Translations under genes and position numbers: made by a program | The notes under the pieces: model-generated | The model's database searches: none | Told to the model about the DNA's origin: nothing | Seen by the model: only the letters and a program-made list of their open reading frames with translations | Shown here: piece by piece, positions 22,033 through 24,470 of the stretch | Layout: every line of letters starts with the position of its first letter | Position numbering within the stretch: position 1 is the stretch's first letter | DNA from: Arthrobacter luteolus NBRC 107841 | Lineage (GTDB): Bacteria; Actinomycetota; Actinomycetes; Actinomycetales; Micrococcaceae | Length of the DNA stretch: 64,000 nt | Assembly: GCF_001552075.1 (NCBI RefSeq) | Contig: NZ_BCQM01000008.1 | Coordinates: 62,001-126,000, forward strand | Direction: 5' to 3'

Positions 22033-22533
22033 CTAACTCCGCGGCGGGAAGATGCCTTGCAGGGCGATGATGAAATTGATTGCCAGATACGGGGGCATGT
22101 TGTTATGCGGCTGGTTGCCGCCCACTACCCCTGTCGGTGCCATGTCAGCGCCTGAGTTGATGGGCCCGTAACTGCCCCCGCGGGCGGGGACCTTTCCTGC
22201 GGGCCGGTCGGAAACCTGCTCAACCGACCCGTACTGAGCATGTGCGTGGGCAGGCATCTCCTGGTGATTAAGCACAACCGCTTCCTGGCCTCCCCGCTGC
22301 CCCTGGTTGTAATAGGAGCCGCTGGGAGATGCTCCCATATGGAGCGGAAAGGTGCCCTGGAGATTCGGCAGTGCAAAGGTGTTCATTCCATCCCCGCCGT
22401 ACGTGGTTCCAAGCAGTGAAAACAGTGCCGAGTTCTGCTGGATCGGCAGGATCTGTCCGTTGCAGTGTGCCCAGCCAACGGGGGCGAACTGGAAACCAAC
22501 CATGCGGATCTCACCGAGATACTGATCGCTCAT
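22033..22533 (-). CDS. Phage tail-collar domain protein (microcystin-dependent protein type)
   Basis: A 166-residue protein. The tail collar fold is evident from YLGEIRMVGFQFAPVGWAHCNGQILPI, ALFSLLGTTYGGDGMNTFALPNLQG, and the end motif PYLAINFIIALQGIFP. Similar free-standing proteins, called microcystin-dependent proteins, occur in many bacteria without other phage genes. It is the last gene of a three-gene operon and overlaps the preceding stop by 4 bases (ATGA). It carries no signal peptide of its own. Partnership with an exported collagen-like lipoprotein suggests a surface fibre or adhesin, which is inference. Confidence 0.88.
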   Translation of the reverse strand: MSDQYLGEIRMVGFQFAPVGWAHCNGQILPIQQNSALFSLLGTTYGGDGMNTFALPNLQGTFPLHMGASPSGSYYNQGQRGGQEAVVLNHQEMPAHAHAQYGSVEQVSDRPAGKVPARGGSYGPINSGADMAPTGVVGGNQPHNNMPPYLAINFIIALQGIFPPRS

Positions 22534-22895
22534 AACTGCTGTCCTTTGGGTAGGTGGGTAAAGACGGCCAGCGCACGCCGCCCGTATGAGGTCAGGAAGA
22601 GGTCCACCGGACCGATTCCCGGGTGGCGGACGCAGTGCAGGCCTTCGGTCATGTCCGCGGAATCGGATTCCATCACCAGCCGGAAGCCCGCTGTGGAGCG
22701 CTCGACGCCGGCGAGTCGAACCTGCAGGCCGCCGACGGACAGGGTTTCACCGACCAGCGGCTCCCACGTCTGAGCCGCATAGGGATCGGGCTTCCCGGTG
22801 GCGGCGTATGCCGGCACCCCGCTGGCTGCGACTGCTGCCAGCGCAGCCGTCCCGGCCAGGAAAACCCGCCGGCTGGGCCTCTTGGCCGGGATCAC
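22530..22895 (-). CDS. Tat-exported small protein (DUF6916-like)
   Basis: A 121-residue protein with a twin-arginine signal (PSRRVFLAGTAALAAVAASG, cleavage likely after AYA). The mature part (WEPLVGETLSVGGLQVRLAGVE, then RLVMES and LHCVRHPGIGPVDLFLTSYGR) resembles the short DUF6916 domain often encoded beside tail-collar proteins. It overlaps both neighbours by 4 bases: its ATG overlaps the collagen gene stop, and its stop overlaps the tail-collar start. Export folded through Tat suggests it works outside the membrane with the collagen-like lipoprotein. The DUF assignment is from memory. Confidence 0.7.
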   Translation of the reverse strand: MIPAKRPSRRVFLAGTAALAAVAASGVPAYAATGKPDPYAAQTWEPLVGETLSVGGLQVRLAGVERSTAGFRLVMESDSADMTEGLHCVRHPGIGPVDLFLTSYGRRALAVFTHLPKGQQL

Positions 22896-24247
22896 GGCTG
22901 CGCGCCGTTGAAGCCAAGTGCGTACCGGAGGTTCTTCACCGGCAGCCCGCCGGTGGAAGCGTAGCCGATGCTGACCGAGTCCCCGGCGGAGACAGTGACC
23001 GGTGTGGCCGGGGCGGTGCAGGCAGCGATCATATTCGCAAGCGTGCAGGCCAGACCGGTGTCCGAGCCGTTGACCCGGACAGTGAGGGTCACCGTGCCGG
23101 CCCGTGGGGTGACGGCGCCGGTGAAACCGGACAGGGTGCCGCCCAGGGGCAGTGCGGTTGCTGCGTCAGGCTCAGCGGCGACCGCCGAGGTCCCGGACAG
23201 CGGGATGAAGGCGGCGGTGTCCGAAGGATCGATGAACGTCAGGGACCCGGTGAAAACCGATCCGTCGCCGGGGGCTCCCTGAGGCCCCTGCGCCCCGGCC
23301 GGTCCTGCCGGTCCGACGGCTCCTATGACGCCGGTTGGACCCTGAATGCCCGGCACACCCTGAGTGCCCTGGGCCCCTTCCGGGCCAGTCTGCCCCTGCG
23401 GCCCCTCCGGACCTATTGGTCCCTGCGGTCCGATAAGGCTTTGGGTTCCTCCGGGCCATGTGCCGGAGGATTTTGGTCCGTAGACGGCGAAGGTTGTTGT
23501 CTCCAGGTAAAAATCGCCGTCCACACCAAAGTTGGCAGCTGGCGCACCCACGCCATTGCGGATGGTATTTCCGTCGCGGCCGGGAAGTCCGGCAGCCCCG
23601 TCGGTTCCGTCCGCCCCATCAGCGCCGTTGGCTCCGTCAGCGCCGTTGGCCCCGGCGGGGCCTGTTGCTCCGGCGGGTCCCGGTGCCCCGTCAGCGCCGT
23701 CAGCGCCGTCGGTCCCATCGGCACCGGCCGGTCCTGCTGCTCCCGGTGCCCCGTCAGTTCCAGCCGCTCCAGCCGCTCCAACCGTCCCGGCTGCCCCGTC
23801 AGCTCCAGCTGTTCCGCCGGCGCCGTCGGCGCCGTTGGATCCAGCCGTTCCGTTGGATCCGGCCGGACCCTGTGCTCCGGAAGCGCCAGCCTCGCCCTTC
23901 ACGCCGGCCTCGCCCTTCTCGCCGGCGTCGCCCTTTTCGCCCTTGTCTCCGGGTTTGCCTGACGCGCCGTCGGCGCCGTTGGACGGCCCGGCGGTCGCGG
24001 CGAAAGTGGGTACTGTTCCGTCAACAGGCCCAGCAGCCAGCCATGACACCGGCAGCTCATTCGGGCCACAGGACAACGTGCCGGCCTCCGAGGTGATGCT
24101 GGAGAAATCCAGTGTTGAACTGTCGAGGCAGGCATGGATTGATGCGGCATCCTCAGCTGACGATGCTGGTGTGCAGGCGCCGAGTGCAAGGACTGCGGCT
24201 GCCGCTGCGGCGGCTAATGAGAGATGTTTGGGGCGCAGGCGGTTCAA
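22892..24247 (-). CDS. Collagen-like lipoprotein
   Basis: A 451-residue lipoprotein. I start it at TTG 24247 because GAGGAG lies 8-9 bases upstream and the chain then opens with a lipoprotein signal ending in lipobox LALGAC. A short globular N-terminal part is followed by 46 unbroken Gly-X-Y triplets, a break (ANFGVDGDFYLETTTFAVYG), 19 more triplets, and a C-terminal beta-rich domain of about 110 residues. The first triplets carry KGE/KGD sequences, the type of charge pairing that stabilises bacterial collagens without hydroxyproline. It heads the operon with the Tat protein and the tail-collar protein. Confidence 0.85.
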   Translation of the reverse strand: MNRLRPKHLSLAAAAAAAVLALGACTPASSAEDAASIHACLDSSTLDFSSITSEAGTLSCGPNELPVSWLAAGPVDGTVPTFAATAGPSNGADGASGKPGDKGEKGDAGEKGEAGVKGEAGASGAQGPAGSNGTAGSNGADGAGGTAGADGAAGTVGAAGAAGTDGAPGAAGPAGADGTDGADGADGAPGPAGATGPAGANGADGANGADGADGTDGAAGLPGRDGNTIRNGVGAPAANFGVDGDFYLETTTFAVYGPKSSGTWPGGTQSLIGPQGPIGPEGPQGQTGPEGAQGTQGVPGIQGPTGVIGAVGPAGPAGAQGPQGAPGDGSVFTGSLTFIDPSDTAAFIPLSGTSAVAAEPDAATALPLGGTLSGFTGAVTPRAGTVTLTVRVNGSDTGLACTLANMIAACTAPATPVTVSAGDSVSIGYASTGGLPVKNLRYALGFNGAQP

Positions 24248-24470
24248 GCTGGCTTCTCCTCGGTCGGCAGAAATGATGTGCCGGGGGAGAGGCGGGGTGG
24301 GAAGCCGCAGTGCATGGGAATTCGTCCCCCCAGGGTCATCCACTGCCGATGCCAAGCGTAAAACGTTTTGGACCCAGTCCAATATTTTATTTCGAAAAGC
24401 GGGCGCAATATGACGGGGACGCCACCGCCACACCGCCCCCGCCAAAAGGTTCCCCAAATAGGACCCGCCA

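What the first reader, a model, noticed from the sequence alone, without database searches (positions are those of the whole stretch)
22033..24247. Collagen-like lipoprotein, Tat-exported protein and phage tail-collar protein in one overlapped operon
Seen: three genes joined by two ATGA overlaps, a lipobox and 46 plus 19 Gly-X-Y triplets in the first, a twin-arginine signal in the second, and a tail-collar fold in the third. Known: tail-collar proteins form trimeric fibre ends in phages, and collagen domains are trimeric. Inference: a surface stalk capped or assembled with a tail-collar head, with no other phage genes nearby. The tail-collar protein has no signal of its own, so how it meets the stalk is a puzzle; it might ride with the folded Tat substrate.
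Basis: partly seen in the sequence, partly recalled or inferred. Interest (0 to 1): 0.7.

Follow-up and report, generated by a model that had tools for sequence, protein, structure and literature searches.

The report
Collagen stalk with phage-like tip
Some Arthrobacter carry a small gene set that pairs a surface collagen-like stalk with an exported helper protein and a phage-fibre-tip protein, and related bacteria have stalk and tip fused in one protein, so bacteria seem to have turned a phage fibre tip into part of their own surface fibres.

Summary
The genes are real: a collagen-like lipoprotein (46+19 Gly-X-Y), a Tat-signal protein that belongs to DUF6916, and a signal-less Collar protein; the overlaps are GTGA and ATGA. 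The set is rare in Micrococcaceae (Collar in 2 of 149 sampled genomes) but not accidental. Collagen-DUF6916-collar recurs in another Micrococcaceae genus and in a distant actinomycete. Collagen genes adjoin 8 of 15 single-collar loci but 1 of 65 multi-collar loci. In one actinomycete family (197 genomes sampled), 11 genomes have signal-like start, at least 20 Gly-X-Y triplets and Collar in one chain. Five sister Arthrobacter have the stalk gene alone at the same place, with another head. The collar belongs to a bacterial family that usually comes as three paralogues, often beside DUF6916 and long secreted Ig/cadherin-like proteins. Best reading: a surface fibre tipped by a domesticated collar, with DUF6916 as exported helper. 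The genetic linkage is supported; docking and the collar's export route are inferred. New variant of a known kind.

The parts
22892..24247 (-). collagen-like lipoprotein gene (451 aa, TTG start)
   Evidence: PF01391 E 5.5e-29
24255..24261 (-). ribosome-binding-like GAGGAGA upstream of the TTG start
   Evidence: sequence
24173..24247 (-). signal peptide with lipobox LGAC (Cys 25)
   Evidence: sequence; motif recalled
23564..23977 (-). first collagen run, 46 Gly-X-Y triplets
23432..23563 (-). non-collagen linker (..VDGDFYLETTTFAVYGPK..), 72-75% identical in the two solo genes of sister Arthrobacter compared
23261..23431 (-). second collagen run, 19 Gly-X-Y triplets
22895..23263 (-). C-terminal head, type A: 28-29% identical to the heads of the two solo genes of sister Arthrobacter compared, 34-38% to the heads of the G023 and G530 operons
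22530..22895 (-). DUF6916 protein with Tat-type signal (SRRVFL), GTGA overlap with the collagen gene
   Evidence: PF21880; AF2 mean pLDDT 92.8 for the mature part
22033..22533 (-). Collar-domain protein, 166 aa, no signal peptide seen, ATGA overlap with the DUF6916 gene
   Evidence: PF07484 E 2.9e-27

Best explanation
The operon makes one cell-surface assembly. The collagen-like chain is exported by Sec, lipid-anchored, and trimerises into a rigid stalk with a C-terminal head. The collar protein folds as a trimer in the way of phage fibre tips and supplies the binding tip, attached to the stalk head. DUF6916, a small beta barrel exported folded by Tat, is the helper or connector that brings or holds the collar. 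Shown here: the genes, the conserved collagen/DUF6916 overlap, their co-occurrence, and natural single-chain collagen-Collar proteins. Inferred: trimers, docking, surface location of the collar, its route across the membrane (Tat piggyback is one candidate), and ligand binding.
For: Fusions: of 197 genomes sampled in one actinomycete family 31 carry a Collar; 13 proteins from 13 of these genomes form one clade with signal-like start and C-terminal Collar, 11 of the 13 with a run of at least 20 Gly-X-Y. Pfam calls Collagen over cut-off plus Collar in 8 of 10 of them scanned. Recurrence: collagen-DUF6916-collar in G154, G023, G530; Tat-like RR signal in 4 of 4 operons. Association: collagen (>=12 Gly-X-Y) adjoins 8 of 15 single-collar loci against 1 of 65 multi-collar, Fisher p 1.8e-6, and 9 of 10 such frames lie within 1 kb; 0 of 40 control regions hold one. 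Module change: same-locus solo stalk genes in 5 sister genomes have a homologous N-terminus; in the two compared in detail N-terminus (67-74%) and linker (72-75%) are close but the head only 28-29%, and none of the 5 has DUF6916 or collar there. DUF6916 lies within 2 kb in 37 of 80 collar loci, in 0 of 40 controls.
Against: No direct evidence that the collar leaves the cell or touches the collagen. The stalk has its own head, so it does not need a cap. DUF6916 goes mainly with multi-collar loci (34 of 65) and less with single ones (3 of 15; 1 of the 8 with collagen, Arthrobacter); 43 of 80 collar loci have none detected. The Myxococcus collagen and collar genes are divergent, and fused proteins have no need of it. 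The 8 of 15 come from three genera, so the p value overstates independence, and some single-collar loci are cut by a contig end (L077). Collagen-model matches occur in 10 of 10 actinomycete genomes searched, so such genes are not rare there. The head-A cosegregation rests on four loci that were used to build the profile. Fused rows fill under half of the tree columns, so their clade may partly reflect length. The head model failed (pLDDT 50.5).
Confidence: 0.5

Rival explanations
1. DUF6916 and collar act together as a separate secreted or envelope complex; the collagen lipoprotein is merely coexpressed with it and not its carrier.
For: DUF6916 goes with collars in 37 of 80 loci, mostly without collagen; a Ruegeria pomeroyi Collar protein was found in the exoproteome (PMC4949626, passages); collar loci commonly flank unrelated long secreted proteins.
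Against: Collagen-Collar fusions; collagen preferentially at single-collar loci; solo stalk genes at the same locus lack both partners and have another head.
Confidence: 0.25
2. The collar protein stays in the cytosol, for example as a folding or trimerisation helper, and only the collagen protein and DUF6916 are exported.
For: No signal peptide seen on the collar.
Against: Fused Collar domains sit behind a signal-like start and collagen, with cysteines before and after the domain seen by eye; exoproteome report for one Collar protein.
Confidence: 0.15
3. Chance or hitch-hiking: a horizontally gained cassette whose genes have no joint function.
For: Patchy presence: collar in 2 of 149 family genomes and 2 of 29 in the genus.
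Against: The 4-base collagen/DUF6916 overlap kept in 4 of 4 operons and dN/dS of 0.10-0.33; same order in another actinomycete family; fusions.
Confidence: 0.08
4. Remnant of a prophage, tailocin or injection machine tail fibre.
For: Collar and collagen families both occur among phage tail proteins.
Against: The 80 kept relatives in bacterial genome contigs are 42-84% identical, while all 272 phage records with a match are under 60% (the 25 listed 31-39%) and the 36 viral contigs mostly 27-40%; the DUF6916 protein had no tblastn match at E <= 0.01 in 50,697 phage records and no PHROG match; lipobox and Tat signal; five neighbours are metabolic, transport or regulatory genes.
Confidence: 0.02

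Closest known systems
EPclA-type prophage collagens of E. coli (PMC3368898, passages read)
   Same: A collagen stalk capped by a phage fibre C-terminal domain that was shown there to trimerise.
   Different: Prophage-encoded, one chain, cap listed as PF06820; the word 'collar' does not occur in the main text held.
COG4675 / 'microcystin-dependent' / RhiB-type Collar proteins
   Same: Same Pfam domain and full-length similarity to bacterial relatives; RhiB is listed as COG4675 in PMC6969944 (table passage).
   Different: The relatives held here usually come as several paralogues, often beside DUF6916 and long Ig/cadherin-like proteins, without collagen. That P0003 itself is COG4675 was not tested.
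Bacterial collagen-like adhesins (Scl, Lcl) and BclA-like spore filaments
   Same: Surface collagen stalk with a globular part (recalled); Scl2/SclB, Lcl and Scl1 models match the repeats.
   Different: Scores are far under the equivalog cut-offs (88.2 of 325, 63.6 of 500, 57.5 of 400); head not recognised in PDB sequences; lipid anchor; BclA likeness is recalled only.
T4 short tail fibre gp12 / gp10 collar fold
   Same: Collar domain; weak PDB sequence match 1ocy E 0.31, Gp10_C under its cut-off.
   Different: No virion genes beside it among those scanned; fold not modelled here.

Membership tests
Phage Tail Collar domain (PF07484) | score over the curated cut-off | tested here: met
   94.8 bits against 24
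Phage Tail Collar domain (PF07484) | trimeric fibre-tip fold | not tested
   no collar model was made; no complex predictor available
DUF6916 (PF21880) | score over the curated cut-off | tested here: met
   32.6 bits against 27; G530 also met; in G023 only my iterated profile finds it, Pfam does not
Bacterial collagen-like protein (PF01391) | long uninterrupted Gly-X-Y | tested here: met
   runs of 46 and 19; shuffles at most 8
Scl/Lcl collagen adhesin equivalogs | NCBIfam equivalog cut-off | tested here: not met
BclA-type head | sequence or fold match of the head to BclA | tested here: inconclusive
   no convincing PDB sequence match; model pLDDT 50.5, not searched
Tat substrate | twin-arginine motif plus hydrophobic stretch, and TatC in the genome | tested here: met
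   SRRVFL (consensus recalled); TatC present in 4 of 4 genomes
Tat substrate | transport by Tat | not testable with these tools
   needs an experiment
Bacterial lipoprotein | lipobox ending in Cys after a hydrophobic stretch | tested here: met
   LALGAC, read; consensus recalled, no predictor run
Phage/tailocin tail module | other tail genes beside it | tested here: not met
   Pfam of five neighbouring genes only

The most novel reading that the evidence does not exclude
A widespread, unrecognised class of bacterial surface fibres: domesticated phage collar proteins form the tips of long secreted stalks (giant Ig/cadherin-like proteins with collar triplets, collagen stalks with single collars, or one fused chain), and the DUF6916 barrel is a dedicated export or assembly factor that carries the signal-less collar out by Tat.
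Probability: 0.3. Interest if true: 0.78.

Novelty: new variant of a known kind. Interest (0 to 1): 0.55.

Why it matters
Collar proteins are common in bacterial genomes outside phages, and the papers I could see give them no firm role. The operon, the fusions and the recurring neighbours suggest a concrete, testable one: tips of secreted fibres. If the collar reaches the surface together with the Tat substrate it would be a natural signal-less passenger system; if it reaches it otherwise, another export route for these proteins has to exist. A natural cap for collagen triple helices could also be of use in engineered collagens (inference).

Full report
Observation. The three genes lie on the minus strand at 24247-22892, 22895-22530 and 22533-22033. 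Pfam gives Collagen, DUF6916 and Collar, each over its curated cut-off. The Gly-X-Y runs are 46 and 19 long, against a maximum of 8 in 1000 shuffles. The overlaps are GTGA and ATGA. The DUF6916 gene, the collar gene and the collagen head show dN/dS of 0.33, 0.33 and 0.10 against A. pullicola. PF07484 and PF21880 have one match each in the whole genome at E <= 0.001.

How rare. G023 does have a DUF6916 relative by my iterated profile (E 8e-14), although Pfam misses it. In the class sample 18 of 394 genomes have a collar.

The operon elsewhere. Collagen, DUF6916 and collar in this order and orientation occur in G154, G023 and, with three collars, in G530 of another family. The 4-base collagen/DUF6916 overlap is kept in these and the window (4 of 4); the DUF6916/collar junction varies. 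The DUF6916 protein has a twin-arginine start in all four, and TatC is present in the four genomes. Collagen-model matches occur in 10 of 10 genomes that I searched, the window's included, which has others besides the operon; collagen as such is therefore not rare in these bacteria.

The locus in sister species. MMPL and FAD oxidase/lactate permease flank the operon in the window (with one extra luciferase-like gene) and in A. pullicola. I fetched the region beside MMPL from 12 of the 29 genus genomes. In 5 of the 12 a single collagen-like gene sits between MMPL and FAD oxidase, with a homologous N-terminus (56-64% in the BLAST matches) but without collar or DUF6916; in 1 (G100) nothing sits there; in 6 neither the FAD oxidase nor a collagen run was found. 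For two of the five solo genes compared in detail, identity to the window protein is 67-74% (N-terminus), 72-75% (linker) and 28-29% (head), while the window head is 34-38% identical to the heads of G023 and G530. Profile comparison says the two head types are distantly homologous (probability 95). The head thus goes with the two partner genes rather than with the species, on a small sample. In the class sample the head-A profile has strong matches in 2 of 394 genomes (window, G530), and both contributed to the profile; two weak ones have no partners.

Wider collar family. A scan of one genome per species gave 114 relatives, of which the best 80 were kept as loci, from many phyla. By my profiles 65 of the 80 loci have two or more collars, mostly three, and 15 have one (some cut by a contig end); 37 of 80 have a DUF6916 relative, all within 2 kb: 34 of 65 multi and 3 of 15 single loci. 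Collagen (>=12 Gly-X-Y) adjoins 8 of 15 single and 1 of 65 multi loci. The eight are Arthrobacter 1, Paenibacillus 4, Myxococcus 3, so three genera; of the eight only the Arthrobacter locus has DUF6916. The Paenibacillus and Myxococcus collagen proteins share a Gly-rich C-terminal region, and the Myxococcus ones look like lipoproteins, both judged by eye. None of 40 control regions from 20 actinomycete genomes has collagen, collar or DUF6916.

Fusions. Of 197 genomes sampled in the family of G522, 31 have a Collar. Among the collar proteins held as loci, 13 from 13 genomes form one clade (SH-aLRT 99, quick tree, with under half of the columns filled for these rows). They have an N-terminal hydrophobic signal-like stretch, a small Cys-containing segment, collagen and a short Collar at the end; 11 have a run of 20 or more triplets, one has 9, one fewer than 8. 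Of 10 scanned with Pfam, 8 have both domains over cut-off, one has Collagen under cut-off, one has Collar alone. G601's match had no locus and was not examined.

Paralogues. In a quick tree of 95 hand-picked rows the window collar falls in a clade with the third collar of several triplets and with the first collar of G530 (SH-aLRT 92-94, not starred) and apart from three phage rows. All 272 phage records with a match are under 60% identical. Plasmid records also hold such genes (69 records).

Triplet neighbours. 39 of 65 multi-collar loci have a frame of at least 1000 aa within 1.5 kb, 36 with a signal-like start or running off the stretch, against 13 and 3 of 40 controls. Of 38 long neighbours picked by hand, 9 match Big_9 and 7 each match three cadherin-like models. 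The four plasmid records that I opened show the same: VCBS, choice-of-anchor or Ig-like proteins beside the collars. So the collagen may be one version of a long secreted partner.

DUF6916. Of 45 frames in those 80 loci, 13 have a Tat-like signal by my motif search and 8 loci have one of each form. The mature window protein is predicted with confidence as a small barrel with a helix; no PDB family stands out.

Literature. PMC4949626 (passages) reports a pfam07484 protein in the exoproteome of Ruegeria pomeroyi. PMC5579227 (passages) lists COG4675 proteins in soil metaproteomes. PMC3368898 (passages) shows a prophage collagen with a trimerising phage-fibre cap. No paper naming DUF6916 was found, and none on bacterial collagen-Collar proteins was seen in the listings; in PMC8968730, a review of prokaryotic collagens, the term search found no 'collar'. 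Only open-licence papers are held.

Judgement. Shown: the genes, the conserved overlap, their non-random association and the natural fusions. Inferred: the shared assembly, the position of the collar at the tip, the role of DUF6916. Least certain: how the collar crosses the membrane.

Noticed in passing
L006, L008, L016, L019, L028, L042, L059, L060: DUF6916 occurs in pairs, one signal-less and one with a Tat-type signal, beside collar genes.
   Followed up: partly
L130 4261-5613 (G260): A lipoprotein-like chain of 451 aa with three Collar matches in one protein.
   Followed up: no
L025, L032, L078 and L026, L050, L072, L082: Myxococcus and Paenibacillus share a collagen + Gly-rich C-terminal protein next to a single collar gene.
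   Followed up: partly
L190-L194: Solo collagen-like lipoproteins with another head at the same locus in five Arthrobacter genomes.
   Followed up: yes
L100, L101; G601 and G619 rows: Collar matches in very long open frames (1534-1781 aa), not examined further.
   Followed up: no
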